Below are positions 3,921 to 37,136 of a DNA stretch of 64,000 bases, in pieces. The stretch is taken from positions 1 to 64,000 of the forward strand of contig MHBE01000011.1 of NCBI GenBank assembly GCA_001803205.1, in the 5' to 3' direction. A program made the position numbers and the translations under genes. Numbering within the stretch: position 1 is the stretch's first letter; the number at the start of each line of letters is the position of its first letter. The notes below the pieces were generated by a model, which was not told the origin of the DNA, did not search any database, and saw only the letters and a program-made list of their open reading frames with translations. This stretch comes from Lentisphaerae bacterium GWF2_38_69. GTDB lineage: Bacteria; Verrucomicrobiota; Lentisphaeria; Victivallales; GWF2-38-69.

Positions 3921-6638
3921 ATGAATGATATTATCAAAATATTTATAGATGGAAGAGAAATCGAAGCATGTCAGGGAGAAAAAATCCTTGATGCGGCTCT
4001 TAGAAATAATATAAACATTCCTAATCTTTGTTATGATAAAAAACTCTCCTGCACAGGTTCCTGCAGGATGTGTATTGTTTCTATTGAAGACAGACCGGTG
4101 AATGTTCCTGCCTGCTCGACAGTCGTTGAAAACGGAATGAAAATAATAGCCTTTAACGATAAACTCGAAGCCGAAAGAAAAGTTATTCTCGATCTTATTC
4201 TTTCCATGCATAATGATGACTGCATCAACTGCGTGAAAGACGGTTCCTGCGATCTGCAGGATTTGGCATTCAGATATGATTTAGGGAGAGGAAAAAGAAC
4301 TTTTCATCCGATGTGGGGAGATGCCGCTGAGTATTCAGATAGCTCCTCGCAGGTTCTTAATTACGATGCGACAAAATGCATTCAATGCCAGAAGTGCATA
4401 AAAGCCTGTCAGGAGATTCAGGGAAAGGGTATTCTGACTCTGGAAAACCGCGGGATAGAAGCGGTAGTTTCAACAGGTTACAATCAATGGAGCGACTCAA
4501 AATGCGACGGATGCGGAGAGTGCGCTCAGGTTTGTCCTGTGGGAGCGCTTACTATGAAGTTCGTCTATACTGACGGAAAGAGATTCAGAGATAAAGACAT
4601 ATCAAAAATAACAGGAACGACTTGTCCTTACTGCGGAGTAGGGTGCCAGCTTGATGTTCACACTAATTCAGAAAATCAGATTATTAAGGTAACAGGCTCT
4701 GAGAGTCTGCCTAATCTGGGTTCTACATGTGTAAAAGGGCGTTTCGGCCTGCAGTATTCGGGGCATAAAGAGAGACTCAAATCTCCAATGATCCGCAGAG
4801 GCAATAGCCTCGTAGAATGTTCATGGAATGAAGCGCTGGCCTTTACTGCGGAAAAACTCAAAGAGATAAAATCAATACATGGCGGAGCTGATATGATTGC
4901 CGGCATGTCTTCGGCCAGATGCACAAATGAGGACAATTATCTCTTTCAGAAATTTATGCGAACTGTTATCGGAACCAACAATGTGGATCACTGCGCAAGG
5001 ATTTGCCACGGTTCAACCGTTGCCAGCATGCTTACTTCGCTCGGTTCAGGCGCTATGACAAATGCAATAGCAGATTTTGAAAAGGCCGATGTAATTTTTG
5101 TAACAGGTTCAAATACAACCGAAACACACCCAGTTATAGCCACGGCAATCAAAAGGGCCGTACTTAATAATAATGCCAGATTAATTGTTGCCGATCCCAG
5201 AAAGATAGACTTGGTAAGGTACGCGGCTGTCTGGATGAAGCAGAAAAACGGAACGGATATTGCGTTAGCCAATGGTTTGATTCATGTGATTCTGAAAGAA
5301 AGCCTGCAGAAGGATGATTTCATAAAGAACAGAACCGAAGGCTTTGAAGAGCTTAAGAAGTCTGTTGAGAAATATACACCCGAGTATGTAGAGAAAATCA
5401 CAGGCGTTCCTGCGGATAAAATTATCGAAGCTGCGAGGATTTATGGAACAGCCCAAAGAGCAAGTATCGCCTGGACAATGGGCATTACCCAGCATGCCTG
5501 CGGCACTGACAATGTCACGGCGCTTACAAACCTTGCAGTTATTACCGGCAATATCGGAAGGGAAGGAACAGGATTGAACCCATTGAGAGGGCAGAACAAT
5601 GTGCAGGGAGCATGCGACATGGGCGCCCAATGGGATTCTTATCCTGGTTATTTCCAGGTAGAAAATGAAACAGCTAAGAACCGCTTTGAAAGCCTTTGGA
5701 AAACTAAACTCTCTTCAAAGAACGGAATTCCTTTAACAGAAATTATGGATGCTGTTCTTGAAGGGAGACTAAAATCTCTCTATATAATGGGTGAAAATCC
5801 GGCTGTTTCAGAGCCTGACCTCAATCATACAGTAGAGGCTTTGAAGTCCCTGGATCTTCTAATTGTTCAGGACATTTTCCTTAATGAAACAGCTCAATAT
5901 GCGCATGTGGTTTTCCCCGCAGCTTCCGCTCTGGAAAAGAATGGGACTTTTACAAACACTGAGAGGAGAGTCATCCCTGTAAGAAAAGTTCTTAATATGC
6001 CCGGACAAGCAAAAGAGGATTGGGAGATAATACAGGATCTTGCTGCAGGCATGGGCTATTTTTGGAATTATCGTTCCTGGGAAGATATCATGAAAGAAAT
6101 CAATCTGGTTGTTCCCCAATATTCTGGAATCACGCCTGAAAGAATAAATAAAGGCGAGCTTATCCAATGGCCATGTCCTGACTCAAAACATCCCGGCACT
6201 TCAATTCTGCACGGAGAGAAATTCACAAGGGGCAAAGCTCTGCTTCAGGCCGTTGAACATATCCCTCCTGCCGAAGAAACATCTGAAGAATATCCATTTG
6301 TGCTCTCAACAGGCAGAAACCTCTTCCACTACCATACAGGTACAATGACGAGAAAAAGCATCGCACTTAACTCTTTTTGCTCAGATCCTTATTTTGAGAT
6401 GAATGAAGATGACATGAGAGAACTTGCTATAAACGAAGGAGAGAAGGTGAAAATCCTTTCAAGAAGAGGGGAAATAATAATTTCAGCAAGATCGTCAAAA
6501 AGAGTAGAAAAGGAAAATCTTTTCCTTCCGTTCCATTTTGCCGAAGCTGCTGCAAATATGCTTACAATTAACGCTCTCGACCCAAAATCAAAAATGGCCG
6601 AACTCAAAGTCTGCGCAGTTAACATAAAGAGACTGTAA
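3921..6638 (+). CDS. fdhA: Formate dehydrogenase catalytic subunit, cysteine form
   Basis: Catalytic molybdopterin (Mo or W) subunit that oxidises formate to CO2. The 905 residues carry a NuoG-like N-terminus with a [2Fe-2S] site (C37, C48, C51, C65), a HX3CX2CX5C [4Fe-4S] site (about 96-110) and two ferredoxin clusters (CIQCQKCIKAC, CDGCGECAQVCP). The FDH core follows, opening with CPYCGVGC (about 235). The active-site segment reads NNVDHCARICHGSTVASM. The catalytic residue is Cys362 (TGC at 5004-5006), where selenoenzymes have Sec. The molybdopterin-binding C-terminal domain ends in the family-typical NALDPKSKMAELKVCAV. The gene lies 10 bases after the NuoF-like gene, so the two are surely cotranscribed. 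Confidence 0.94.
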   Translation: MNDIIKIFIDGREIEACQGEKILDAALRNNINIPNLCYDKKLSCTGSCRMCIVSIEDRPVNVPACSTVVENGMKIIAFNDKLEAERKVILDLILSMHNDDCINCVKDGSCDLQDLAFRYDLGRGKRTFHPMWGDAAEYSDSSSQVLNYDATKCIQCQKCIKACQEIQGKGILTLENRGIEAVVSTGYNQWSDSKCDGCGECAQVCPVGALTMKFVYTDGKRFRDKDISKITGTTCPYCGVGCQLDVHTNSENQIIKVTGSESLPNLGSTCVKGRFGLQYSGHKERLKSPMIRRGNSLVECSWNEALAFTAEKLKEIKSIHGGADMIAGMSSARCTNEDNYLFQKFMRTVIGTNNVDHCARICHGSTVASMLTSLGSGAMTNAIADFEKADVIFVTGSNTTETHPVIATAIKRAVLNNNARLIVADPRKIDLVRYAAVWMKQKNGTDIALANGLIHVILKESLQKDDFIKNRTEGFEELKKSVEKYTPEYVEKITGVPADKIIEAARIYGTAQRASIAWTMGITQHACGTDNVTALTNLAVITGNIGREGTGLNPLRGQNNVQGACDMGAQWDSYPGYFQVENETAKNRFESLWKTKLSSKNGIPLTEIMDAVLEGRLKSLYIMGENPAVSEPDLNHTVEALKSLDLLIVQDIFLNETAQYAHVVFPAASALEKNGTFTNTERRVIPVRKVLNMPGQAKEDWEIIQDLAAGMGYFWNYRSWEDIMKEINLVVPQYSGITPERINKGELIQWPCPDSKHPGTSILHGEKFTRGKALLQAVEHIPPAEETSEEYPFVLSTGRNLFHYHTGTMTRKSIALNSFCSDPYFEMNEDDMRELAINEGEKVKILSRRGEIIISARSSKRVEKENLFLPFHFAEAAANMLTINALDPKSKMAELKVCAVNIKRL

Positions 6639-7114: not shown

Positions 7115-7205
7115 AACAATATTACATTGACAGTCAACGCCCTCGACCCCCAAGTCCAAAATGGCCGAACTCAAAGTCTGCGCTATAAAAATACAAAAAT
7201 TATAA
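7115..7205 (+). pseudogene. Relic of the 3' end of a second fdhA gene
   Basis: The bases match the tail of the intact fdhA (about 6563-6638). Both contain an exact shared stretch reading aaaatggccgaactcaaag and tctgcgc. Translated, the relic gives LTVNALDP, a one-base excess of C, then SKMAELKVCAIKIQKL and TAA, against LTINALDPKSKMAELKVCAV in the intact gene. Differences at third positions and at the C-terminus show a diverged paralogue rather than a recent copy. Nothing upstream of about 7115 remains of the second gene. Confidence 0.75.
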
Positions 7206-7297: not shown

Positions 7298-9745
7298 ATG
7301 TCAGATGAACTATTTTGGAAACGCAAACTTTTAGCCTATCTCCACGACCCACCGGATAAAGCACTGGATATTTTAAACCATGAAGAAAATGCAAAAACAT
7401 TTCAAAAAGGGGCTGGGTTCACTGAGGAGAGTGAAAGAATTAACCTTCTAAAAGAGGTTAAGAAAGCAGATCATTTTGCTTCATCTGCTGAACGCTTTGT
7501 CTTTCCGAAGGGGAAATGTTCTACACAATTCAATGGGCAAAAAGGTTCGTCTTTTCTACATCCTCTTTCTTCTGCTGAATATCTGACTCCGGAAAACTTT
7601 TCTGTTCAGGCTGGAGAATTACATGGAATACTTCAGAATGCAGTTGGCGGCATAAACACTGAAGATTGGCGCAAAAAGTTTTTTCTTTACTGGAGAAGGT
7701 GGCTTGAGAATTCCAAAACGAATAACAAACAGAACGCCGAACATCTTGCTCTGCTTCCTGCAGATACTAGAATTCCTGATCATTCAATCTGGAATCATAT
7801 TTCGATAACATCAGCCTTAGCAGGATGCATAGAAACTGGAGAAGTAAAACCTGCCATGCTTCTTTTTCAGTTAGGCCCTGTTCAGGATTTCATAGCTCAG
7901 GCTCGTTCCACAAGAGACTTATGGAGCGGAAGCTATCTTCTCTCCTGGCTCATAGCTCATGCGATGAAAGCTGTTACTGACGAAATTGGGCCCGATTCAA
8001 TTATTTTCCCAAGCCTCAGAGGCAATGGTATTTTTGACGCCTTACATAAGGATGAAGTTTATTCAGAACTTTGGAATGATAGGAATGGCAAAGAAATGTC
8101 TACCTGGAAAAGGATGATAGAAGAGAAAGGAGATAAAGAAAAAGAATGGCTTCTTACTCCGACTCTCCCAAACCGTTTTCTTGCGATAGTCTCTGAATCA
8201 AAAGCTGAACAACTTGCGAAGCTTGCAAGTGAAGCGATCCAAGTTGAACTCAAAAATATCGGCAATGCTGTTTGGGAGTGGATAGAGTCAGAAGCTCAAA
8301 AAGCAGAATGCAACGATGTTTCGAATTGGAAGCTTCGCTGGGATTTTCAGATAAAATCGTTCCCTCAAATCTCATGGGCTGTTCAACCCTGGCTTGACCG
8401 TGAAACTTGCCTTCAGGAATTGGCTAATCTTCCTAACCAGGAAATTTACAAGAGATTAAAATATGTGCTTGAATTGGGTGAAAGGGTTTTGCCGTTTGAA
8501 GATCGGGATCAAAGATATTATGAAGATAATGAAAAGACAAAATTCAATAGCTCGGGTATTTTCTGGTCAGCTCATTATGCCCTTGTGGACGCACAACTTG
8601 CCGCTAGAAGGAATACTCGTGATTTCAATTCTTGGGTAACCGATAAAGGAAGCGTCAAAGATTCGCTCTCAGGAAAAGAGGAAATTATAGGAACAGAGGA
8701 ATTCTGGAAACATCTTGTTAAAGAACATCCGAAATTATTTCCCAGTTCTGGACATCGGTACGCTGCAATGAATCTAATTAAAAGACTCTGGTGCAGAAGC
8801 GATAAGGTAGATTATCTTAAAAGAAAACTCGGAATAGAGCCAAATATTCGCTTTGATTCTATTCCTGATGTAGCTGGAGAAAGAGAATATGTAGCTGTTC
8901 TTGCTATGGACGGTGACGAAATGGGCAAGTGGGTTTCAGGTGAGAAGACACCAAAACTTCTCGATCAACTTTCGGAAAAAGCCAAAGTATATCTTAGAGC
9001 CAAAGATAAAAAAGAAGTCCACAGACTTTTGACTCCATCTTATCACTTGCAGTTCAGCGAAGCTCTGGCTAATTTTTCTACATGGATTGCCGGATCAATA
9101 GTTGAGGAGTTTGATGGACAGCTTATCTATTCGGGCGGCGATGATGTGCTTGCAATGCTTCCGGCAGATCAGGCAATTGCCTGCGCTGAAAAATTGCGGA
9201 CTGCTTTCAGAGATGATTTCAATGGCAATAGGGTAACTCCCGGCTCAAAAACTGATGTGTCTATAGGTTTGGCAATTGGACACATACATGCTCCGCTTCA
9301 AATGCTGGTTCGTGAAGCTCAGAAAGCAGAGAAGAGAGCCAAGAATGAGTATAAGAGAAGTGCTCTGGCAATCTCTCTCTACAAGCGTTCAGGCGAGATA
9401 ATACAATGGGGATGCAAATGGGAGTCTGTCGCTATCGAACTTATAAATAAAGTTACTGAATTGTCAAGCGGAGATGAACCTCGGTTATCAGGCCGTTTCC
9501 CCTACGCTTTAGCTCAAATCCTAAAACCTTACAGATTAAAAGGTTCTATTCCTGACATGAAGGAAATTGTCATGAAAGAGTTTGAGCATGTTGTGGAACA
9601 GCAGGGGAGAAACCTGAAAAACGAAAAGGGAGAGTTTTTAGAACTCGGCAGGAAATGGCTTGATCAGACATCAGACAAGCTGGAAGATTTTGCCAATCTG
9701 TTTCTTGTGGAAACCTTTATTAACCGTTTCAAGGGAGAAGCATGA
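7298..9745 (+). CDS. cmr2: Cmr2 (Cas10), type III-B CRISPR large subunit with cyclase motif
   Basis: Large subunit of the type III-B Cmr effector. In this family the Palm domains convert ATP to cyclic oligoadenylate when target RNA is bound. The N-terminus has LLAYLHDPPDKAL (about 11-23), the degenerate HD-type segment usual in Cmr2. LFQLGPVQDFIAQARSTRD (about 188-207) is a strong family signature. The first Palm domain has AVLAMDGDEMGKW and the second has the cyclase motif GGDD at residues 613-616. The length of 815 is normal. An intact GGDD fits the two CARF-domain proteins encoded downstream. It starts the cmr operon and overlaps cmr3 by ATGA. Confidence 0.95.
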   Translation: MSDELFWKRKLLAYLHDPPDKALDILNHEENAKTFQKGAGFTEESERINLLKEVKKADHFASSAERFVFPKGKCSTQFNGQKGSSFLHPLSSAEYLTPENFSVQAGELHGILQNAVGGINTEDWRKKFFLYWRRWLENSKTNNKQNAEHLALLPADTRIPDHSIWNHISITSALAGCIETGEVKPAMLLFQLGPVQDFIAQARSTRDLWSGSYLLSWLIAHAMKAVTDEIGPDSIIFPSLRGNGIFDALHKDEVYSELWNDRNGKEMSTWKRMIEEKGDKEKEWLLTPTLPNRFLAIVSESKAEQLAKLASEAIQVELKNIGNAVWEWIESEAQKAECNDVSNWKLRWDFQIKSFPQISWAVQPWLDRETCLQELANLPNQEIYKRLKYVLELGERVLPFEDRDQRYYEDNEKTKFNSSGIFWSAHYALVDAQLAARRNTRDFNSWVTDKGSVKDSLSGKEEIIGTEEFWKHLVKEHPKLFPSSGHRYAAMNLIKRLWCRSDKVDYLKRKLGIEPNIRFDSIPDVAGEREYVAVLAMDGDEMGKWVSGEKTPKLLDQLSEKAKVYLRAKDKKEVHRLLTPSYHLQFSEALANFSTWIAGSIVEEFDGQLIYSGGDDVLAMLPADQAIACAEKLRTAFRDDFNGNRVTPGSKTDVSIGLAIGHIHAPLQMLVREAQKAEKRAKNEYKRSALAISLYKRSGEIIQWGCKWESVAIELINKVTELSSGDEPRLSGRFPYALAQILKPYRLKGSIPDMKEIVMKEFEHVVEQQGRNLKNEKGEFLELGRKWLDQTSDKLEDFANLFLVETFINRFKGEA

Positions 9746-10956
9746 TGAATAGTTTTAGTTTTCATATCGAACCAAGAGATTTGCTTTTCATGCGCGACGG
9801 GCGCCCGATGGAAGCTTCGGATGCAGGATTAGGAGCAAACTGGCCGAGACCTGACCAAATATATTCTGCATTTATCAATACTTTTCATGCCCAATGGTCT
9901 GATTTTCAGTCATGGGAAGGGCACAGACATAATCAGAATGACAGAGATACAAATAAGGATAGTTCATATCGTTTCGGCTCTTTAAAAACTGCAGGGCCGT
10001 TTCCTGCAAAGGGTAAGGAAATCTATCTCCCTTGCCCTCTTGATCTATCAGCAGATGACAATGGTTGTCTGTATCCGATGAAACTTGTTGAGGCAAAAAA
10101 TACTGATATGCCCAAACCTCTTACTCATGCTTTCTCTTCAGTTAAATTAGGTAAGACAGATCTTCCTCAATGGATATCATCAGCCGATTATCAAAAGTAT
10201 CTCAAAGGCGAATCTTTCAAGTCTAATAACGCAGAACTATATGATGTTGAGAGAAATATAGGAATAGCCATTGATCCTGCCACAGGAACCACAGAAGAAG
10301 GCAAATTGTATCAGGCTGAATATCTCAGATTCAAGCCTGAAACTAAAATGGCTATTTCTGCCTCATGTGAGATAGGCCTTGATAAACTTCTAGATAAAGG
10401 CCGATTTGATATGATCATGGGCGGACAGCAGGGCGTTTGCATGGTCAGCCAGGTTTCTGATCTATCTCTTCCTTCTTCCTGTTCGCAGAACATTCCTCAT
10501 TCCTTGTTCCTCAAATGGACTCTGATCTCTCCTTCTGTCTATCCAAAAATAGGCGAACATCCCGGCGGCTGGCTGCCTAGCTGGATAGATTCATTGACGG
10601 GTCAGGTTCTTTTGCCCAAAGGAAATACAGAAAGGAGGTCTGGAGAAAAAAGAGAGGTATGGCGCAAAAGAGTTGAAATAATGGAAAAATTTATGGCAAA
10701 ATTAGTCGCTGCGAGAATCGGCAAACCTCTTGCTTTTTCGGGCTGGGACTTACAGAGCGGTGCAAAACCAACCTATCTCGCAGCGCCTGCCGGGTCAGCG
10801 TATATCTTCAAATGCAAAGATATTGAGGAAGTAAAGGCTCTATCAGACGCACTTTCCTGGAATGGGGCTACTGGAAACGAAGTTAAAAACCGCCGTTCTA
10901 CGCTATTCGGGGAAAAGGGTTTTGGTCTAGGAATTTGTTCACAAATTAAAATATAA
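9742..10956 (+). CDS. cmr3: Cmr3, type III-B CRISPR subunit
   Basis: Cmr3 is the RAMP protein that sits beside Cmr2 and holds the 5' tag of the crRNA. The N-terminus IEPRDLLFMRDGRPMEA is characteristic of the family, and the RAMP glycine-rich loop appears near the C-terminus (LFGEKGFGLGICSQIKI). It has 404 residues. Its ATG overlaps the cmr2 stop (ATGA). Around residues 240-258 the coding sequence contains a copy of the TTCCTG...CATTCC hairpin element (10470-10512) that otherwise lies mostly between genes of this locus. There it encodes a Ser/Pro-rich segment (LSLPSSCSQNIPHSLFL). Confidence 0.9.
   Translation: MMNSFSFHIEPRDLLFMRDGRPMEASDAGLGANWPRPDQIYSAFINTFHAQWSDFQSWEGHRHNQNDRDTNKDSSYRFGSLKTAGPFPAKGKEIYLPCPLDLSADDNGCLYPMKLVEAKNTDMPKPLTHAFSSVKLGKTDLPQWISSADYQKYLKGESFKSNNAELYDVERNIGIAIDPATGTTEEGKLYQAEYLRFKPETKMAISASCEIGLDKLLDKGRFDMIMGGQQGVCMVSQVSDLSLPSSCSQNIPHSLFLKWTLISPSVYPKIGEHPGGWLPSWIDSLTGQVLLPKGNTERRSGEKREVWRKRVEIMEKFMAKLVAARIGKPLAFSGWDLQSGAKPTYLAAPAGSAYIFKCKDIEEVKALSDALSWNGATGNEVKNRRSTLFGEKGFGLGICSQIKI
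10470..10512 (+). repeat. TTCCTG...CATTCC hairpin element, copy a (inside cmr3)
   Basis: The core is TGTTC-GCA-GAACA (10480-10492), a perfect 5-bp stem with a 3-base loop, flanked by TTCC on both sides and followed by a second TTCC-rich stretch (attccttgttcc). The same arrangement occurs near 12258, 13785, 15288, 18039, 18140 and 18589. This copy is in frame within a conserved gene. Confidence 0.6.
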
Positions 10957-10972
10957 AAGGGAGAAAAGAATA

Positions 10973-11773
10973 ATGGAAAAGAAAATTATGGCAATCTTTA
11001 CAAGGACACCGCTTCATGTGGGCGCAGGTAATTCAGTCGGGGCAATAGATTCTCCGATTATGCGCGAAAGACATACAAGAATTCCAATAATTCCCGGTTC
11101 ATCTCTTAAAGGCGTGCTCAAGGATTTGTTCAATGACAGAAAAGAAGAGCAGAATATTCTTTTCGGGAAAGGCGACTCTGCCGGCAAACTGCACATCGGC
11201 GAAGCCAGAGTTCTGGCCTTTCCTGTCCGCTCTGCCAAAGGTTCCTTCGCTTGGATTACTTCGCCAATTGCTTTAGCAAGATATGAAAGGGATTCAGGGA
11301 TAAAAATGGATATAGATAAACTTGATGGACTCGAAGATAGCCAGTGCTTTGGTGCTCAGGATGTTATTTTGGGTAAGGATGTTGTTCTTGAAGAGTATAA
11401 ATTTGAATCTCAAGGTTTGTCCGAGGATATAGCATCAAAGTTGGAAAAAACCTTCGATGACAAAATCTGGAAAACAGTTGCTACAAGACTGGTCATAGTC
11501 AACGACGAAATATTTTCATACTTCTGCGAAAACGCCTGCGAGGTAGTTACTAGAATATGCATTGATGATGAGACAGGAGTTACTAAATCTGGCGCTCTTT
11601 TCAATCAGGAACAGGTTCCGTCAGAGACCATGTTCTATGCAGTCATCGGAGAACAGAAAGACGGATATATCGAAACTCTTAAAAAATCTCTTTCTCCAGT
11701 CCTTCAGATTGGCGGCGATGAAACCATCGGCCTTGGTTTCTGCTCAGTAGTTTTGTATGAGGTGACTAAATGA
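10973..11773 (+). CDS. cmr4: Cmr4, type III-B backbone subunit and target-RNA nuclease
   Basis: Backbone RAMP protein, several copies of which line the crRNA and cut bound target RNA at 6-nt intervals. The N-terminus shows TPLHVGAGNSVGAIDSPIMR, in which D26 matches the known catalytic aspartate of Cmr4. HTRIPIIPGSSLKGVLKD is the family's thumb-side motif, and the glycine-rich loop near the C-terminus reads LQIGGDETIGLGFC. The length of 266 is somewhat short but complete. The stop overlaps the cmr5 start (ATGA). It lies 16 bases after cmr3, with GGGAGA before its ATG. Confidence 0.94.
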   Translation: MEKKIMAIFTRTPLHVGAGNSVGAIDSPIMRERHTRIPIIPGSSLKGVLKDLFNDRKEEQNILFGKGDSAGKLHIGEARVLAFPVRSAKGSFAWITSPIALARYERDSGIKMDIDKLDGLEDSQCFGAQDVILGKDVVLEEYKFESQGLSEDIASKLEKTFDDKIWKTVATRLVIVNDEIFSYFCENACEVVTRICIDDETGVTKSGALFNQEQVPSETMFYAVIGEQKDGYIETLKKSLSPVLQIGGDETIGLGFCSVVLYEVTK

Positions 11774-12111
11774 AAAACCTCGAACAAATAAGAGCTAAAA
11801 ATGCACTGGAAGCCGCTCCCAATATAAAAGGGGGAGAAAAGGATGGAGAAGTAGTTAAAAAAATTCCTCCAATGATAAGAGATAGCGGGATATTAGCGGC
11901 TGCAGCTTTTGCTAAAGAAAAAGGGAAAGGGTATCAATCCGTCATTGATGCCATTGTTTGTCATCTTAAATGTGATGGCATAGGAATTATGCCTCGCAAT
12001 GAAACTGATTTTATTAAATGGTTAGCGGAAAAAGTCGATTCAGCTAAACTCAGGGCTGTTACTGAAGAAACCATGGCATATCTGAACTACTTACGCCGGT
12101 TTGTGAGGTAA
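11770..12111 (+). CDS. cmr5: Cmr5, type III-B small subunit
   Basis: Small all-helical subunit (113 residues) that packs against the Cmr4 filament and helps hold target RNA. The start MKNLEQIRAKNALEAA and the later IMPRNETDFIKWLAEK fit Cmr5, as does its position between cmr4 and cmr6. The AAAFAKEKGKGYQSVIDAI helix is typical. No catalytic motif is expected. It overlaps cmr4 by ATGA and lies two bases before cmr6. Confidence 0.88.
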   Translation: MKNLEQIRAKNALEAAPNIKGGEKDGEVVKKIPPMIRDSGILAAAAFAKEKGKGYQSVIDAIVCHLKCDGIGIMPRNETDFIKWLAEKVDSAKLRAVTEETMAYLNYLRRFVR

Positions 12112-12113
12112 TT

Positions 12114-12821
12114 ATGCCTATCCAAACCATAAAAGAAGTAAAAGCTGTTTTAAAGGAGAGCGAACTGAGTTTTTCTCTGCGAATGTCGAAATTTGCCAAA
12201 GTCGGTGAAAAAGATGCTGTTTCCTTTATTTACGAAGCAAAGAAAGTTCATTTTTCCTGCTTCAGCATTCCTTCTTCCTCCAGCTTCGAAATGAAACTCG
12301 GCGGAAGACTTATAGTCAACCACGCTGGCGGCGTCCTCGAAAATTCCGGCCTCTGTATCCACCGCTTTTTCAACTACCCGATGATTCCGGGAAGCGCCCT
12401 CAAAGGCATCGCCGGTCATGCCGCCTGGCTGAAACATCAGGAATGTTCTGACGAACAGGAACAAAGGAAACTCAAGGAACAGATAATCAAAATCTTTGGA
12501 AGTTTCGGAAATGAAACAAAGAGCGAAAACGCTGGAACAATTGCTTTCCTGGCAGCTGTGCCAGCTAAGGACGACTGGAAACTCGTCACAGATGTCCTGA
12601 CTCCGCATGGAGGCAATGACTACACAAACCCCGTCCCGAGTTTCTTTGTTGCCGTAGAAAAAGGAGCTACTTTTAAATTCACACTAAAAAAGACTTCCAG
12701 AGCTGAAGCAGACGATTTGGAACTTGCAGAAAACTGGCTTAAACGAGGCCTGACTGAAAACGGCGCTGGAGCTAAAACCGCCGCCGGCTACGGCTGGTTC
12801 AAGGAGGTCACAAATGGATAG
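12114..12821 (+). CDS. cmr6: Cmr6, type III-B RAMP subunit
   Basis: RAMP protein that caps the 3' end of the crRNA with Cmr1. Family features are RLIVNHAGGVLENSGLCIHR, then PMIPGSALKGIAGHAAW, FGSFGNETKSENAGTIAFL, DVLTPHGGNDYTNPVP and the C-terminal glycine-rich GAGAKTAAGYGWF. It has 235 residues. Bases 12256-12280 carry a weaker copy of the locus hairpin element (TGCT-TC-AGCA flanked by TTCC). It overlaps cmr1 by 8 bases. Confidence 0.92.
   Translation: MPIQTIKEVKAVLKESELSFSLRMSKFAKVGEKDAVSFIYEAKKVHFSCFSIPSSSSFEMKLGGRLIVNHAGGVLENSGLCIHRFFNYPMIPGSALKGIAGHAAWLKHQECSDEQEQRKLKEQIIKIFGSFGNETKSENAGTIAFLAAVPAKDDWKLVTDVLTPHGGNDYTNPVPSFFVAVEKGATFKFTLKKTSRAEADDLELAENWLKRGLTENGAGAKTAAGYGWFKEVTNG
12256..12280 (+). 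repeat. TTCCTG...CATTCC hairpin element, copy b (inside cmr6)
   Basis: The core TGCT-TC-AGCA (12258-12267) has TTCC on the left and TTCC on the right, followed by another TTCC. It shares the frame TTCCTG...CATTCCTTCTTC with copy f at 18140 and differs in the loop. It is weaker than the other copies and could be chance within coding sequence. Confidence 0.35.
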
Positions 12822-13773
12822 AGCAAAAGTTAAGTTCACATTCGTAACTCCCTGCATTACTTCCGGAGCTGATCAAAGAAAAGCAGAACTGCGAATTCCA
12901 TCTATCAGAGGGCAATTAAGATGGTGGATGAGAACTTTGGGTTATGAAGAATCAGTTCATAGTATTTTGGGAGGTATCGATTCTACAGGGAATGCTATTT
13001 CAAGCAGTTTTATTATTAGAGATTGCACTGAAAATAAAATAAAGACGGATGTACTAGAAAGAGATAGAAGCGACTATTTCTTATGGCCAATAAGGAATAA
13101 AGGATACATCTATGAGGATGAAGAAATACATATTGAAATCATCTATAGATATCGAAAAGATGCAAGTGACTTTCCAGATGAAGTTTTAAAGATATTCCTT
13201 CTTTTGGGTTCACTTGGCACAAGAAGCCGTAGGGCTTATGGGAGTATCTATCCAACTTCAGTTGAAATTGATGGAATCTCTTGGGATATACCAAAGGATA
13301 TTGCATCCTTCAAAAAGGAAATTTACGAGATTTTAAAAGGGCTAAACTGCAAAGTCTTATTGCTTTCACAATCTCAACAGAGATGGCAGGATGCTGTTGG
13401 TGTGTGTGCTTCTTTTCTCAAAGAATTCAGATGCGGGAGTACGAGGTATGGTCAGACTCCCAGTAAGTGGGGCAAATATGACCATGACTTAGCCTTTAAA
13501 GGTGATACTATTTATCGCGCTTCAATAGGAATGCCCCTTAAAACGAAATATTACGAAGCAAAAATAAATGACTTTGACAGGCTTGCAAGTCCAGTTCATT
13601 TTAAGGTTATTAAGCTTGGAAATGGCTTTTATCCAATATCAATCATTTTTCCTGACCATGCGCTTAAAGAAGGTTTAAATGTAAGAGTAGGACTAAAAAA
13701 TGTAAAGCTTTCACATGACTTGTTATATGCAATGATGGATGCTGATAATGTTGAAGTCTTATTTGATTCCTGA
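12814..13773 (+). CDS. cmr1: Cmr1, type III-B RAMP subunit
   Basis: Cmr1 family RAMP at the 3' crRNA end of the complex. Recognised by FVTPCITSGADQRKAELRIPSIRGQLRWWMR-type sequence at the N-terminus, of which IRGQLRWWMRTLG is the hallmark, by the LLGSLGTRSRRAYGS glycine/arginine loop, and by ASPVHFKVIKLGNGFYPISI near the C-terminus. It has 319 residues and is the last gene of the six-gene cmr operon. Its final codons and stop run into hairpin element copy c. The gene looks AT-richer than cmr6. Confidence 0.92.
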   Translation: MDRAKVKFTFVTPCITSGADQRKAELRIPSIRGQLRWWMRTLGYEESVHSILGGIDSTGNAISSSFIIRDCTENKIKTDVLERDRSDYFLWPIRNKGYIYEDEEIHIEIIYRYRKDASDFPDEVLKIFLLLGSLGTRSRRAYGSIYPTSVEIDGISWDIPKDIASFKKEIYEILKGLNCKVLLLSQSQQRWQDAVGVCASFLKEFRCGSTRYGQTPSKWGKYDHDLAFKGDTIYRASIGMPLKTKYYEAKINDFDRLASPVHFKVIKLGNGFYPISIIFPDHALKEGLNVRVGLKNVKLSHDLLYAMMDADNVEVLFDS

Positions 13774-13802
13774 TTCCTTGTTCCTGTTTGAAAAACATTC
13801 CT
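13768..13802 (+). repeat. TTCCTG...CATTCC hairpin element, copy c (after cmr1)
   Basis: The core TGTTT-GAA-AAACA (13785-13797) is a perfect 5-bp stem, with TTCC before and TTCCT after. It is nearly identical to copy d at 15271. The element starts inside the cmr1 stop codon region (gattcctgattcc) and separates the cmr operon from the next gene. Confidence 0.7.
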
Positions 13803-13822
13803 GAATTTAAAAAGAGGTAAAG

Positions 13823-14305
13823 ATGGCTAGAAAATTTGAAGAAATCCCTGTCTGGCAGAAGGCCAGAGAATTGTGCAGGCGTATATATTCTGTTACAAAA
13901 CAAAAACCATTCTGTTACGATAGAGGTCTGGTTGACCAGATCACGAGGGCAGCTGTTTCGGTTTTGTCCAATATTGCCGAAGGTGTAGAGCGAGGCTCTA
14001 CTGCGGAGCTGCTTCAGTTTCTTTTCATTGCAAAAGGCAGTGCAGGTGAAGTAAGAGCTCAGCTCTATGTGGCTGAAGATCAGAATTACATCACCAATAA
14101 AGAATCGGAGGAACTCAGGAATGCTGCGCAGGAAATAAGTTATCAGCTCTCGAATTGGATAAAGTCTCTTCAGACTCCTGATGCTCCAGTCGGCCCCAGA
14201 TATAATAAAGAAAAATCAAAATCTGATAAAATATACGAGGAAAACCACCATTTCTGGGAAGAGAAGGCCAGAAAAGACTACGAAGAAAGAATAAAAGAGA
14301 AATAA
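13823..14305 (+). CDS. Four-helix-bundle protein (TIGR02436, S23/Avd-like)
   Basis: 160 residues. The first 120 match the widespread four-helix-bundle family first named for an rRNA intervening-sequence protein (TIGR02436). Signatures are KFEEIPVWQKARELC at the start, QITRAAVSVLSNIAEGVERGS in the middle and KGSAGEVRAQLYVAEDQNYI near residue 75. The same fold is used by Avd of diversity-generating retroelements, but no reverse transcriptase or template repeat is seen here. The last 35 residues form a strongly charged tail (KEKSKSDK, EEKARKDYEERIKEK), probably helical. It lies between cmr1 and the CARF nuclease with a good AAAGAGG site. A role in CRISPR immunity is not established. Confidence 0.85.
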   Translation: MARKFEEIPVWQKARELCRRIYSVTKQKPFCYDRGLVDQITRAAVSVLSNIAEGVERGSTAELLQFLFIAKGSAGEVRAQLYVAEDQNYITNKESEELRNAAQEISYQLSNWIKSLQTPDAPVGPRYNKEKSKSDKIYEENHHFWEEKARKDYEERIKEK

Positions 14306-14307
14306 CT

Positions 14308-15275
14308 ATGATGATGATATCTATAGCAAGCAAGCAAGTTTGGCCTCAGATATTAAGCGTCCTACACTTTAAACCCAAAAAGCTTATTCTTCTGCATTCA
14401 AAAGATGATCAGGAGTCAAAATCGCCAGCTTATCGCTTGAAGGCATTCTTTGAAAAACAGAAACTGCTCGAAACCGTTTCTCCCAGAGAAATCTCACACA
14501 GGAAGTTTGAGGATTTAAGCAATATGAAGCTGGAGCCTGACTGCATACTGAACCTTACTGGCGGCAATAAACTTATGTCCTTTTCCATCTATGAGTTAGG
14601 AAGACAAAAAACTCTAAAATGTTCTATCTGGAAAGGAACAATGAAATCGTATGGCTAAATCCGTCTTCCGCATCTCAAAAGATAGACGGCTCAATTATTG
14701 ACGCTTTTGACCCTGCCGACCTTGTCGAATGCCAGCTTTCTGCCTCGTGGCTTGAGCGCAAGGGAGAACTTATAGCACTTGTTAACGGGCAGCTGAAAAT
14801 TTCAGACAAGCTTCCTCCGGAAGAGAAGAAAAAAGGTGACGATCTAGAATATGAGACAGCTAAAGAAGTTCTTAAGCTCGGAATAAAGCAAATCAGGAGA
14901 AGCCTGAGGTTGAAGCCAAAAGTTTATGGGAATCAGATTAAACCTCATAATGAAATTGACTTGCTTTTTATCTGGAAAGGAAAACTATGGATAATTGACT
15001 GTAAGGACAGGGTGTCTCCTCATAAACTTATGGAAAATCTGAGGGGAGATAAAAAAACGCTTGACAATGTATTGGGACAAATCAAACAGAATCGTACTCA
15101 TTATATAAAAGATGATTTGGTGGCCATTGCCGAGACAGGAGGTATTATGGGTAAAGCTGTATGTGTCTGGAAAGAAGACATGCCCCCTGAACTTTTATCG
15201 TATGCAAATCATCTTGGTGTCGAGTTTGTCAGGAAAGATATGCTTAAAGAAGGTCTTGAACGAATCCTTTCCTGA
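14308..15275 (+). pseudogene. Card1/Can2-like CARF nuclease (DUF1887), broken by a -1 frameshift
   Basis: Two overlapping frames (14308-14658 and 14619-15275) together encode one protein of about 320 residues. The first holds a CARF domain with LNLTGGNKLMS (residues 84-88 TGGNK), the ring-nucleotide sensing loop. The second holds a PD-(D/E)XK nuclease domain with NEIDLLF (E112, D114 of that piece), then IIDCKDR (D127, K129), the spacing seen in Card1/Can2. These are cyclic-oligoadenylate-activated nucleases of type III CRISPR systems. The joined reading runs through LKMFYLERNNEIVWLNP if one A is added to the A4 run at 14616-14619. An A6 run lies at 14606-14611. The break could be real, an assembly error or slippage. 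Confidence 0.8.
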
Positions 15276-15306
15276 TTCCTATGTTCCTGTTTGAAAAACA
15301 TTCCTA
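15268..15306 (+). repeat. TTCCTG...CATTCC hairpin element, copy d (before cas1)
   Basis: The core TGTTT-GAA-AAACA (15288-15300) is identical to copy c, with the same flanks (cctgattcct before, TTCCTAA after). It overlaps the stop of the CARF nuclease and precedes cas1, so it again marks a module boundary. Confidence 0.7.
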
Positions 15307-15318
15307 ACTGGAGTTATT

Positions 15319-16347
15319 ATGCCAAGTTTAATTATCACGGGAGAAACAGTTTCTGTCAGGCTCGAATCAGAACATCTGGAACTGGTCAAAAGAGATCCTG
15401 ACGACCAGAGAGGAGAGAGGATGATTCGCATGAGAGTTCCTCTCTTTGATGTGGACAGATGCGTTATTATAGGGCGTCCTGCCATGAGCATCCCTGTCCT
15501 CCAGCAGCTAATGAAAAGAGGCATTCCGACTTTTTTTCTGAGTTCCAGGTATCGTTGGTACGGGGCTTTGCACCCGGATAAAAATATGAATGCCGAACGC
15601 CGCATCCGACAATACCAATTGGCCAATGATCACGAACTTGCCTTGAAAATATCCAAAAAACTTGTTTATGCAAAGCTTCGCAACTGCCGGAGAGTCCTTC
15701 AGCGCCTCTCTGCCAACCGGAGCGAGTCTGAAAATCCTGCTCAGGTCAAATTTGCAGCCCAGATAAAAAACTACGGCCGGATGGCGCTGATTGGAAAATC
15801 ACTCGAAGAAATAAGAGGTTATGAAGGCATGGGGACAGCTATCTACTTCAGCCGCCTCTCGGATTTCTTTCCGCCAAATGTGCCCTTCAAGGGAAGAAAC
15901 CGACAGCCTCCCAGAGACGCGGCAAATGCGATTCTATCATGGACATACACTATAGTTCTTGGTGAACTTGAATCTGTCATCAGAAGTCATGGCCTTGATC
16001 CATGCATAGGTTTCCTGCATAGCGTTTCAAATGGTTCTCCATCTTTGGCTCTTGATCTGCTTGAACCTTTAAGACCTGCTCTCTGCGATATGCTGGTGAT
16101 GCATCTTCTGAATCATAAGGTGCTGACTGATGATGATTTTGAATTTAATGCCGAGGACGGTGGAACCTATCTTGCCAAAGATTCAATGAAAGAGTTCTTT
16201 ATGTCCTATGAAATCTATATGACTAGGAAGTTCACTCTCCGCAGAGGCGAGGATCATATAGATTACAGAAAGATTATAGATTCTCTTGTAATTGGAATCC
16301 TAAAAGCAATGGAAGGGAAGGAATTTCAGTTTTTTATCATGCAGTGA
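15319..16347 (+). CDS. cas1: Cas1, CRISPR integrase
   Basis: Metal-dependent integrase that inserts new spacers with Cas2. It has 342 residues with an N-terminal beta-sandwich and a helical catalytic domain. The three metal ligands of the family are recognised as E169 (GYEGMGTAIYF), H234 (IGFLHS) and D246 (SLALDLLEPLRP). It is a stand-alone Cas1 with no fused reverse transcriptase. The gene follows hairpin element d and precedes cas2 by 6 bases. No cas6 gene is found near it. Confidence 0.95.
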   Translation: MPSLIITGETVSVRLESEHLELVKRDPDDQRGERMIRMRVPLFDVDRCVIIGRPAMSIPVLQQLMKRGIPTFFLSSRYRWYGALHPDKNMNAERRIRQYQLANDHELALKISKKLVYAKLRNCRRVLQRLSANRSESENPAQVKFAAQIKNYGRMALIGKSLEEIRGYEGMGTAIYFSRLSDFFPPNVPFKGRNRQPPRDAANAILSWTYTIVLGELESVIRSHGLDPCIGFLHSVSNGSPSLALDLLEPLRPALCDMLVMHLLNHKVLTDDDFEFNAEDGGTYLAKDSMKEFFMSYEIYMTRKFTLRRGEDHIDYRKIIDSLVIGILKAMEGKEFQFFIMQ

Positions 16348-16446
16348 GAAACTATGAACGAATTTGAAAACATTAACGAATACAACCGATATAAGATCGG
16401 AGAAGATTCATCTGAATATGATCCTTCAAAGGAGGTTTATAGGAAT

Positions 16447-16722
16447 ATGCTCTACATAATTGCTTACGACATACGCGAGCCAAAACGGCTGCGAAAAGTA
16501 GCCAAAACTTGTGAAGACTACGGTATCAGAGTAGAATATAGCGTCTTTGAGTGCGATTTTTCAGAAGAGATTTTTAGGGAATTCTGGGATAAGCTGAAAT
16601 TACATGTTGATGAAGACGAAGACAGCCTTCTGGCTTACAGAATCTGCGGAAGCTGCGTTCAGAAAATCGAAAGCAGCGGTGCCGTGGTTCGTCCGGGAAA
16701 ACCTCTTCTTTATTTTATGTAA
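16447..16722 (+). CDS. cas2: Cas2, CRISPR adaptation protein
   Basis: Small ferredoxin-fold dimer that bridges two Cas1 dimers during spacer integration. MLYIIAYDIREPKRLRKVAKTCE-type sequence opens the protein (IAYDI carries the family aspartate), and the sequence ends RPGKPLLYFM. An ATG at 16354 in the same frame would add 31 residues of acidic, non-family sequence. A strong AAAGGAGG at 16428-16435 precedes the ATG at 16447, giving 91 residues, the usual Cas2 length, so that start is chosen. Confidence 0.92.
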   Translation: MLYIIAYDIREPKRLRKVAKTCEDYGIRVEYSVFECDFSEEIFREFWDKLKLHVDEDEDSLLAYRICGSCVQKIESSGAVVRPGKPLLYFM

Positions 16723-16744
16723 CTTATATTAAGGATAATTTTAT

Positions 16745-18022
16745 ATGAAAATTCTTTTAATAAGCGTAGGCGGCAATCAGGAGCCTGTAATCTTTTCGAT
16801 TATGAATAATAAACCAGATAAGATAATATTCTTTGTTTCCGAGGGAACTCGCGAGAAAGTAACAAAAGATATTATTCCTGCTGTTTTCAAAGAAAGCAAT
16901 CAGATTCCGGACTTTGAAATAATTAAGACTCCAGATGAACAGGATGTGGGAATTTGTGTAAAAACGCTTCTCTCATCTGTTCCAAAGGCCATGAGAAAAC
17001 TTAATATCTATGACAGACTTTGGCCTGATATAGTGGACTATACAGGAGGCACAAAAACTCTTAGTTCTTCCCTTGTCTGGGCATCTGCCAAATATCCTTG
17101 CAAGCTTTCTTATATTGGTTCAAAGGACAGTTCCGGCAGATCAAAAGACGGTCTTGGCATTGTCCAGACAGGCAGGGAATATCTGCTTCTTATCGAAAAT
17201 CCCTGGGACAAAATAGCTTACTTTGAAGTTGAATCTGCTATGCTTCTTTTTAATAAGTGCCAATATGCTTCAAGTGCATCTATTCTTAGGTCAATTGTCG
17301 AAAAGATATCTGATGAAAGGTTAAAGGTTCTTGTTTCTTCACTTTGCGAAGTGGTCGAAGGCTATGCCGCATGGGATGCGTTCGATCATTTTAAAGCAAG
17401 AAGGCTTTTGGAATCCAATAGAGAAAAACTAACTAGTTTCACCGATCTCGAACAAATACTCATTCCAGGACTTAAACCTTTTATTGAACAGATGATTGAA
17501 AATATTGAATTCTTACGAAGCTTGAATCCTAATAAGTTGTCATGGCCTATTCTTTATGATCTTCTTGCCAATTCTGCAAGACGGGCTTTTATCGAAAGAA
17601 AATATGAAGATGCTTCTGCAAGATGTTACGCTGTTATCGAAAAGATTGCCAAATATGAACTCCAGAAAACCTATGGCATAAATACAAGCAATGCATCTCC
17701 AGAGCTTCTTCCTGAAGCAATAAGGTCTGATTATATTAAAAAATATTCAATTAAACAATTGGATGGATCTGAGAAAATTCAGTTCGGTGCTATTGCTGCC
17801 TATGAGATTCTATCTGTTTTGAATAATACTTATGGAAAAAGGTTTAACTCAATTGCGAATATTCGGCCGCATCTAACAGAACGAAATCAATCCATTCTTG
17901 CTCATGGAATTCAACCAATGGACAAAGCTAAATTTGATAACCTATTTCTTGATGCCTTAAAAATCCTTAATATCTCGGAAAATGAACTTATTAAATTTCC
18001 CACCTTCTCACTATTATTATAA
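16745..18022 (+). CDS. TIGR02710-type CARF-HEPN protein (Csm6/Csx1-like ancillary RNase)
   Basis: Predicted cyclic-oligoadenylate-activated RNase of type III CRISPR systems. The N-terminal CARF domain begins ILLISVGGNQEPVI and carries DYTGGTKTLSSSLVWAS near residue 100, the conserved ligand loop of the Cas02710 family. The C-terminal half is helical and ends with a HEPN-type RX4-6H motif, R380-N381-X5-H387 (RNQSILAH). It has 425 residues. With the CARF nuclease upstream frameshifted, this may be the only working second-messenger effector here. It is the last gene before the array. The exact family name is from memory of motifs. Confidence 0.85.
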   Translation: MKILLISVGGNQEPVIFSIMNNKPDKIIFFVSEGTREKVTKDIIPAVFKESNQIPDFEIIKTPDEQDVGICVKTLLSSVPKAMRKLNIYDRLWPDIVDYTGGTKTLSSSLVWASAKYPCKLSYIGSKDSSGRSKDGLGIVQTGREYLLLIENPWDKIAYFEVESAMLLFNKCQYASSASILRSIVEKISDERLKVLVSSLCEVVEGYAAWDAFDHFKARRLLESNREKLTSFTDLEQILIPGLKPFIEQMIENIEFLRSLNPNKLSWPILYDLLANSARRAFIERKYEDASARCYAVIEKIAKYELQKTYGINTSNASPELLPEAIRSDYIKKYSIKQLDGSEKIQFGAIAAYEILSVLNNTYGKRFNSIANIRPHLTERNQSILAHGIQPMDKAKFDNLFLDALKILNISENELIKFPTFSLLL

Positions 18023-18060
18023 GTTCCTTCTTCCTTTATTCTTATGAAGCATTCCTTTAT
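18023..18060 (+). repeat. TTCCTG...CATTCC hairpin element, copy e (divergent)
   Basis: This copy reads gttccttcttcc, then attcttatgaagcattcct. The right flank CATTCCT is kept and the centre can pair as CTT-ATG-AAG (18041-18049), but the left TTCCTG is changed to TTCTTA. It starts one base after the CARF-HEPN stop. Confidence 0.4.
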
Positions 18061-18130
18061 TAATTTTGGCGGGACTCCAAACCCCCCAAAAAAACCTTAC
18101 TCGCGCCGAAAACCTCTTTTCGTGCCTGAT

Positions 18131-18175
18131 ATTTGTTCCTGCAAAGCATTCCTTCTTCTTTTATTCCTGCCCAAA
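18131..18175 (+). repeat. TTCCTG...CATTCC hairpin element, copy f
   Basis: TTCCTGCAAAGCATTCCTTC contains the stem TGC-AAA-GCA (18140-18148) inside the same TTCC flanks, followed by ttcttttattcctgccc. It lies in the leader region of the CRISPR array, about 100 bases before the first repeat. Confidence 0.5.
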
Positions 18176-18209
18176 TGGCATCTTCCCTCACATTCCCGCC
18201 GAAACGCTA

Positions 18210-18238
18210 TTGGAACTTTCTGAAATTTAGTATATTAG
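18210..18238 (+). promoter_or_regulatory. Probable leader promoter of the CRISPR array
   Basis: TTGGAA at 18210-18215 and TATTAG at 18233-18238 (17-base spacing), or TATATT at 18231-18236 (15-base spacing), lie just upstream of the first repeat at 18249. The AT-rich leader and the intact repeats lie on this side, while the repeats decay on the far side. This fits transcription rightwards. Confidence 0.45.
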
Positions 18239-18248
18239 ATATGTAGCT

Positions 18249-18502
18249 GTCAGAAATGACTGAAGAGCCGAAAGGCGATTGAGACTTATCGTGTATCCAT
18301 CTGCAAGTTTCATTTTTATTTTGGTCAGAAATGACTGAAGAGCCGAAAGGCGATTGAGACGGATTATTGCTGCTAGTTCCCAACACTTCTTCAATAAGTC
18401 AGAAATGACTGAAGAGCCGAAAGGCGATTGAGACTTTTGCTGCCAATAAAACTAACAAGCCATGTAGTTTTAGTCAGAAATGACTGAAGAGCCGAAAGGC
18501 GA
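18249..18502 (+). CRISPR. CRISPR array: three intact 37-nt repeats, one truncated terminal repeat, three spacers
   Basis: Repeats start at 18249, 18324, 18398 and 18473. The first three are 37 nt and end in GATTGAGAC, the usual type III/I repeat 3' end. The fourth matches for 30 nt (to 18502) and then changes to GAAAAAC. The spacers are 38, 37 and 38 nt. The repeat holds two small hairpins, each closed by a GAAA tetraloop: GTCA-GAAA-TGAC and GCC-GAAA-GGC. The array follows the cas genes on the same strand. Further decayed repeats seem to continue beyond it. No spacer source can be named from the sequence alone. Confidence 0.95.
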
Positions 18503-18545
18503 GAAAAACCAAAGCTTTGCTTTGCAGGAAAATTGAAGCATGAAA

Positions 18546-18716
18546 GTCAGAAAGCTGATAGGAAAGAGGAATAAAAGTTCCTTATTCCTGTTCGAAGAAC
18601 ATTCCTTGTTCCTTCTGCCGTCAGGCATGACCGCCGAGCCGATCTGACTGCGCCTTTGGGCTACGACGGACAATAAGGCCAAGGAGTAAGATGTGTCAGC
18701 GTGTCCTGCGAAGATT
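18546..18716 (+). repeat. Decayed continuation of the CRISPR array (three relic repeats in register)
   Basis: Three GTCAG-starting segments follow the array at 18546 (GTCAGAAAGCTGA), 18620 (GTCAGGCATGACCGCCGAGC, 17 of the first 22 bases as in the repeat) and 18695 (GTCAGCGTGTCC, TGCGAAGA). The start-to-start distances from 18249 onward are 75, 74, 75, 73, 74 and 75 bases, so the relics keep the period of the live array. The second relic keeps the first hairpin stem GTCA/TGAC. Hairpin element copy g lies in the interval between the first two relics. Confidence 0.5.
18575..18616 (+). repeat. TTCCTG...CATTCC hairpin element, copy g (after the CRISPR array)
   Basis: The core TGTTC-GAA-GAACA (18589-18601) is a perfect 5-bp stem, with agttccttattcc before and TTCCTTGTTCCTT after. 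It has the same stem as the copy inside cmr3 and the same loop as copies c and d. Confidence 0.7.
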
Positions 18717-37087: not shown

Positions 37088-37136
37088 AATATCGTATTTA
37101 CCTTATGCTTTAAAAGTTCATGAATATAATAATATC

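What the first reader, a model, noticed from the sequence alone, without database searches (positions are those of the whole stretch)
14308..15275. Card1/Can2-like CARF nuclease with intact domains but a -1 frameshift
Both the CARF (TGGNK) and PD-(D/E)XK (EID...DCK) motifs are intact, but they lie in different frames that join at A4 (14616-14619), near an A6 run. All other genes of the locus look intact. Either the nuclease was recently switched off, or reading needs slippage, or the assembly has an indel.
Basis: partly seen in the sequence, partly recalled or inferred. Interest (0 to 1): 0.6.

Follow-up and report, generated by a model that had tools for sequence, protein, structure and literature searches.

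The report
Frameshifted Can2/Card1 CRISPR effector gene
In this bacterium's CRISPR immune locus, the gene for a signal-activated nucleic-acid-cutting enzyme is split by a one-base frame change that its relatives lack, most likely an ordinary recent loss of one of two effectors (or an assembly slip), not a new way of making the protein.

Summary
ORF 14308-14658 ends inside a CARF domain; the rest of the CARF fold and a complete PD-(D/E)XK nuclease lie in the -1 frame (open 14595-15272). The gene is a Can2/Card1-type ancillary nuclease of a type III-B (Cmr) locus, from a subfamily found mainly in Verrucomicrobiota, between cmr1 and cas1. All 12 full-length homologues examined are uninterrupted and none has an A-run at the site. 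Read across the frame change, the protein has their TGGNKLM-to-FYLER spacing and keeps 40 of their 51 invariant residues, so this is a net one-base change in a recently intact gene. A model of a relative matches Can2, Card1 and VC1899 over its full length. There is no canonical slippery heptamer, stimulatory structure or conservation, so programmed frameshifting is unsupported, though not excluded. The split lies inside the CARF fold, against a working two-part protein. A sample of the assembly shows no other confirmed frameshift, but a single assembly slip cannot be ruled out without reads. An intact CARF-HEPN effector remains. Most likely a recently inactivated effector. Side observation: hairpin repeats confined to this locus.

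The parts
14308..14658 (+). First frame: N-terminal two thirds of the CARF domain (about 101 residues in register, then an out-of-frame tail)
   Evidence: PF23400 CARF_Card1 1.2e-7; PDLC01880 7.5e-13
14595..15275 (+). Second (-1) frame: end of the CARF fold and the PD-(D/E)XK nuclease; first ATG at 14619
   Evidence: PDLC01880 3.3e-7
14605..14621 (+). Stretch in which the frame changes, with A6 (14606-14611) and A4 (14616-14619)
   Evidence: alignment to 12 relatives
7298..9745 (+). cas10/cmr2, GGDD cyclase motif present
9742..13773 (+). cmr3, cmr4, cmr5, cmr6, cmr1, all uninterrupted (cmr5 by position and synteny)
13823..14305 (+). S23-type four-helix-bundle protein gene; no match to it in the related loci compared
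   Evidence: PF05635 1.2e-34, TIGR02436
15319..16722 (+). cas1 and cas2
   Evidence: cas1 TIGR00287
16745..18022 (+). Intact CARF-HEPN effector (TIGR02710/Csx1-Csm6 type)
18249..18511 (+). CRISPR array, 4 repeats, the last degenerate

Best explanation
This is a Can2/Card1-type ancillary nuclease gene of a type III-B CRISPR locus, disabled by a recent net one-base frame change inside its CARF domain. Family knowledge says how the intact enzyme works: Cas10 makes cyclic tetra-adenylate on finding target RNA, this binds the CARF dimer, and the PD-(D/E)XK domains cut nucleic acid. In this genome ordinary translation gives only a 116-aa CARF fragment with no nuclease, so cOA signalling would act through the intact CARF-HEPN effector at 16745-18022. 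Shown: the frame break, homology, synteny, the fold of a relative, and retention of the catalytic motif. Inferred: that the change is real in the organism, that it abolishes function, and that the second effector carries on.
For: 12 of 12 full-length homologues are uninterrupted; same spacing across the junction and 40 of 51 invariant residues kept; no further stop in the 226-codon second frame. No canonical slippery site, no unusual structure (z -0.45), no A-run in 12 of 12 homologues. Accessory-gene decay occurs in the same window: YhcG with an in-frame stop. Of 33 CARF4-PDDEXK places in 387 genomes of the phylum, two besides this one look broken or truncated (G209, G434). An intact second effector is present.
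Against: No reads and no same-genus genome were available, so one assembly slip gives the same picture. Both halves are so well kept that the loss must be very recent, which is also what an artefact or a recoded gene would look like. The break lies at or next to homopolymers, where both errors and slippage occur.
Confidence: 0.62

Rival explanations
1. Assembly or sequencing indel, or a consensus of mixed strains: the organism's gene is intact and the contig differs by one base at a homopolymer.
For: Draft genome of 66 contigs; the junction holds A6 and A4 runs; both halves are well conserved.
Against: A codon-usage scan of about 263 kb of this assembly (window plus stretches) gave 28 junctions; the 3 without a nearby start are all pairs of complete separate genes. 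Sensitivity is limited: 84 of 145 simulated losses found, 48 of 145 with the start filter, and the scan missed this very gene. It excludes an indel-rich assembly, not one slip.
Confidence: 0.22
2. Recoding or switching: ribosomal or transcriptional slippage at the A-run, or reversible run-length change, makes some full-length nuclease.
For: A6 and A4 lie within the 61-nt overlap of the open frames; a purine-rich AGGAAG lies just upstream; both halves look functional.
Against: No X XXY YYZ heptamer in the reading frame of the overlap; z -0.45 for the RNA around it; 0 of 12 homologues have an A-run of four or more there, and all 12 are plain ORFs. A6 is short for phase variation or transcript slippage (general knowledge).
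Confidence: 0.1
3. The two ORFs are translated separately and the CARF and nuclease pieces act together.
For: An ATG lies in the overlap at 14619. In G209 another CARF4 place has a CARF ORF and a nuclease ORF in different frames.
Against: The split falls inside the CARF fold, between helix 103-116 and strand 119-123 of the relative's model, not between domains. The nearest Shine-Dalgarno-like AGGAAG is about 15 nt from the ATG. The relatives are fused (12 of 12).
Confidence: 0.04

Closest known systems
Can2 (Sulfobacillus thermosulfidooxidans, PDB 7BDV; PMC7969007) and Card1 (PDB 6WXW, 6XL1)
   Same: CARF plus PD-(D/E)XK architecture, type III linkage, full-length fold match of a relative (7bdv Z 22.7, 6xl1 Z 21.1; profile matches 6e-16 and 3.5e-8)
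   Different: Sequence identity is low (16-21% over the fold alignment); the window gene is a separate subfamily and is frame-broken
Subfamily of 12 full-length homologues L038-L049, mostly labelled Verrucomicrobiota
   Same: Same domain order, motifs and place between cmr1 and cas1 where the locus is long enough to show it
   Different: All 12 are single uninterrupted ORFs and lack the A-run
Frameshifted or stop-interrupted cas1/cas2 genes in Sulfolobales (passage of PMC7694759) and frameshifts noted in a Mycobacterium lacus cas locus (passage of PMC10333696)
   Same: cas-locus genes broken by frameshift or stop in otherwise recognisable loci
   Different: Those named are adaptation genes, or not specified; here it is a cOA-activated nuclease

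Membership tests
Can2/Card1 ancillary nucleases | N-terminal CARF domain of the Card1 type | tested here: met
   PF23400 1.2e-7, above its cut-off; PDLC01880 7.5e-13
Can2/Card1 ancillary nucleases | C-terminal PD-(D/E)XK nuclease with E(I/L)D...(D/E)CK | tested here: met
   NEIDLLF...WIIDCK in the second frame, aligned to ELDVVF...VIECK of Can2 via the relatives; PDLC01880 3.3e-7
Can2/Card1 ancillary nucleases | Can2/Card1 fold over the full length | tested here: met
   For the relative L047, not the broken protein: top Foldseek and VIA rows are Can2, Card1, Cdn1, VC1899
Can2/Card1 ancillary nucleases | Linkage to a type III locus with a cyclase-competent Cas10 | tested here: met
   cas10 with GGDD and the cmr genes directly upstream
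Can2/Card1 ancillary nucleases | One continuous reading frame | tested here: not met
   Frame changes between about 14605 and 14621; it is a broken relative, not a working member as sequenced
Can2/Card1 ancillary nucleases | cA4-activated dimeric nuclease activity | not testable with these tools
   Needs biochemistry
Programmed -1 ribosomal frameshift genes | In-frame X XXY YYZ slippery heptamer | tested here: not met
   Codons of the overlap read contain none; a one-tRNA slip at AAA remains possible
Programmed -1 ribosomal frameshift genes | Stimulatory downstream structure | tested here: not met
   14596-14700 folds no better than shuffles, z -0.45, 58 of 200 shuffles as good; pseudoknots not tested
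Programmed -1 ribosomal frameshift genes | Site and frame change conserved among relatives | tested here: inconclusive
   0 of 12 distant homologues have it; no same-genus genome with the gene is held

The most novel reading that the evidence does not exclude
The A-run is a lineage-specific switch: slippage or reversible run-length change lets a small or variable share of cells make a full-length cOA-activated nuclease, limiting the cost of a dangerous effector while the CARF-HEPN effector does the routine work.
Probability: 0.07. Interest if true: 0.65.

Novelty: new member of a known kind. Interest (0 to 1): 0.22.

Why it matters
If the break is real, it is a clear snapshot of a type III locus losing one of two signal-activated effectors while keeping the signal maker and the other effector. 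The most similar whole locus found carries a different nuclease subfamily in the same slot, which suggests that effectors are exchangeable parts. If recoding were shown instead, it would be a new layer of control over a dangerous immune nuclease. As it stands it is an ordinary gene disruption, useful mainly as a caution when counting effectors in draft genomes.

Tried and rejected
Close relatives of the gene were sought and not found in genome contigs with the C half alone, in plasmids and in viral contigs. The profile search gave 17 loci. I used the 12 with full-length matches and dropped 5: L050-L053 (Bacteroidota, partial 23-24% matches) and L054 (CARF part only), though L054 is discussed separately.

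A phmmer search of the nuclease half against solved structures gave only weak, spurious chaperone matches. NCBIfam has no model for this gene or its relative L047.

The codon-usage frame scan gave 28 junctions, most of them ordinary overlapping genes. Of its same-frame cases, three places were tested with no Pfam match (L056, L059, window 36348); two (L060 at 779 and L061 at 18721) were not tested as joined proteins. None was shown to be a gene break. The scan did not flag the CARF nuclease itself.

I considered that the CARF fragment might act as a cOA sponge. It lacks the last strands of the CARF fold in the model, so I did not pursue it. Searches for print on frameshifted CARF effectors; the listings showed no such report, but subscription journals are mostly not held. 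Papers: PMC7694759, PMC10333696, PMC11229360 and PMC7969007 were seen as passages only; the rest as search listings. Searches on heptamer or palindromic repeats near cas genes listed nothing on this repeat; one listing (PMC4679880) reports intergenic heptamer repeats in Beggiatoaceae.

A REP-like origin of the TTCCT hairpins was looked at: the genome has three Y1 transposase matches, none on the window's contig C11. No link was shown.

Full report
What is there. The window is contig C11 of a draft genome of 3.12 Mb in 66 contigs, 95% complete. Named relatives of the gene come mainly from records labelled Verrucomicrobiota, including Lentisphaeria and Victivallales. The finding lies in a type III-B CRISPR locus: cas10/cmr2 (7298-9745, GGDD present), cmr3, cmr4, cmr5, cmr6, cmr1 (to 13773), a four-helix-bundle S23 gene (13823-14305), the split CARF nuclease (14308-15275), cas1, cas2, a CARF-HEPN effector (16745-18022) and a four-repeat CRISPR array (18249-18511). 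The cmr5 and cas2 calls rest on position and synteny. I did not look for cas6.

The split. ORF 14308-14658 carries most of a CARF domain with NLTGGNKLM. The -1 frame, open from 14595 to 15272, carries FYLER, the rest of the CARF fold and a PD-(D/E)XK nuclease with NEIDLLF...WIIDCK. The open frames overlap by 61 nt and contain A6 (14606-14611) and A4 (14616-14619). Each half alone matches the same PADLOC CARF_PDDEXK family.

It was one gene. A profile search brought 12 full-length homologues, L038-L049. All 12 are uninterrupted, and G372 and G209 add two more intact ones. In loci long enough to show it, the gene sits between cmr1 and cas1, sometimes with one or more further genes beside it. Read across the frame change, the window protein aligns without a gap at the junction and has the relatives' 15-residue distance from TGGNKLM to FYLER. 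It keeps 40 of 51 residues invariant in the 12: 16 of 19 before the junction and 24 of 32 after. So the difference from an intact gene is a net one-base frame change, placed by the relatives between about 14605 and 14621.

What the intact gene is. The relative L047, modelled from the 12-sequence alignment (pLDDT 87, pTM 0.82), matches VC1899 (Z 24.3), Can2 (Z 22.7), Cdn1 (Z 22.5) and Card1 (Z 21.1) over nearly its whole length. The top 23 Foldseek chains are all Can2, Card1, Can1, Cdn1 or VC1899. By profile, Can2 (7bdv) matches at 6e-16 and Card1 (6wxw) at 3.5e-8. Can2/Card1 enzymes are cA4-activated CARF nucleases that degrade DNA and RNA, by passages of PMC7969007 and PMC11229360. [quoted passage not shown]

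Why loss is the best reading. There is no canonical slippery heptamer in the overlap (codons read). The RNA around it is not unusually structured (z -0.45). None of the 12 homologues has an A-run of four or more at the site. An A6 run is common enough here (73 per 64 kb) that finding one in 61 nt is about a 7% event, and indels favour such runs anyway. The break falls between a helix and a strand of the CARF fold in the relative's model, so a two-part protein is unlikely. Damage to this effector class is seen elsewhere. Of 33 CARF4-PDDEXK places in 387 genomes of the phylum, four have open frames under 250 aa. One is this gene. One (G078) runs to the end of the stretch held. One (G209) has CARF and nuclease halves in different frames. 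One (G434) shows only the C-terminal end. I examined one further place (G385, intact as one ORF) and did not go beyond the table for the rest.

How far an artefact can be excluded. Reads were not available. A codon-usage scan of about 263 kb of this assembly gave 28 frame junctions. Three had no start codon near the upstream stop, and in all three both sides match separate Pfam families and look like separate genes. The scan recovers 84 of 145 simulated one-base losses, or 48 of 145 with the start filter, and it missed this very gene. It therefore excludes an assembly rich in indels, not a single slip. One other gene in the window, YhcG/DUF1016 at 906-2054, is broken by an in-frame stop inside its nuclease domain, so interruption of accessory genes is not confined to this one.

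Effector exchange and repeats. The most similar whole locus found, L054, is 65% identical in Cmr4 and 50% in Cmr1. It carries a different Can2/Card1 subfamily in the same slot (PDLC01880 at 3.1e-100), next to an IS200/IS605-type transposase gene. Here the S23 gene and the nuclease are bounded by two identical 22-nt hairpin repeats (13781, 15284). These belong to a family TTCCTG-stem-loop-CATTCCT with varying but still pairing stems. The loose pattern has 11 matches in the genome, 8 of them within 10476-18606 of this contig, and copies lie in cmr3, cmr6 and the S23 gene as well as between genes. In 197 genomes of the class the loose pattern is mostly at a scatter level, higher in one genus (g19; up to 34 matches). 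The strict hairpin with up to one mismatch is in 6 of 197 genomes, with 4 copies here and at most 2 elsewhere. Such repeats might mark joints at which effectors are swapped; that is a guess.

Verdict. The most likely meaning is an ordinary recent inactivation of one of two effectors (0.62), then an assembly slip (0.22), then recoding or switching (0.10), then a split enzyme (0.04). Interest is low to moderate.

Noticed in passing
10476-10497, 12254-12272, 12439-12461 (-), 13781-13802, 14117-14134 (-), 15284-15305, 18136-18153, 18585-18606: Hairpin repeats TTCCTG-[stem/loop]-CATTCCT whose stems vary but still pair (TGTTC/GAACA, TGTTT/AAACA, TGC/GCA), with TTCCT also recurring at 7-nt spacing around them. 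8 of the genome's 11 pattern matches lie in this 8.1-kb CRISPR locus, between genes and inside cmr3, cmr6 and the S23 gene.
   Followed up: partly
13767-15305: The S23 gene and the split nuclease are bounded by two identical 22-nt copies of that repeat (1503 bp apart); both cmr1 and the nuclease end in TCC TGA within a TTCCTGA unit, as if the block were an inserted cassette. The S23 gene had no match in the related loci compared.
   Followed up: partly
906-2054: A YhcG/DUF1016 PDDEXK nuclease gene lies between oxidoreductase subunit genes and is interrupted by an in-frame stop at 1788-1790 inside the YhcG_C domain.
   Followed up: partly
L054:5950-8018: The most similar whole locus found has a different, intact Can2/Card1 subfamily member in the same slot after cmr1, directly followed by a 324-aa protein with an IS200/IS605-type transposase domain.
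   Followed up: partly
L091 (G209:C23, around 36818-37174): A further Can2/Card1-type place whose CARF ORF (152 aa) and nuclease ORF (209 aa) lie in different frames about 120 nt apart; broken, or encoded as two proteins split after the CARF domain.
   Followed up: partly
6581-6638 and 7148-7205: A 58-nt copy (79% identical) of the 3' end of the large oxidoreductase gene 3921-6638 lies just before cas10; perhaps a remnant of an old duplication or insertion joint.
   Followed up: no
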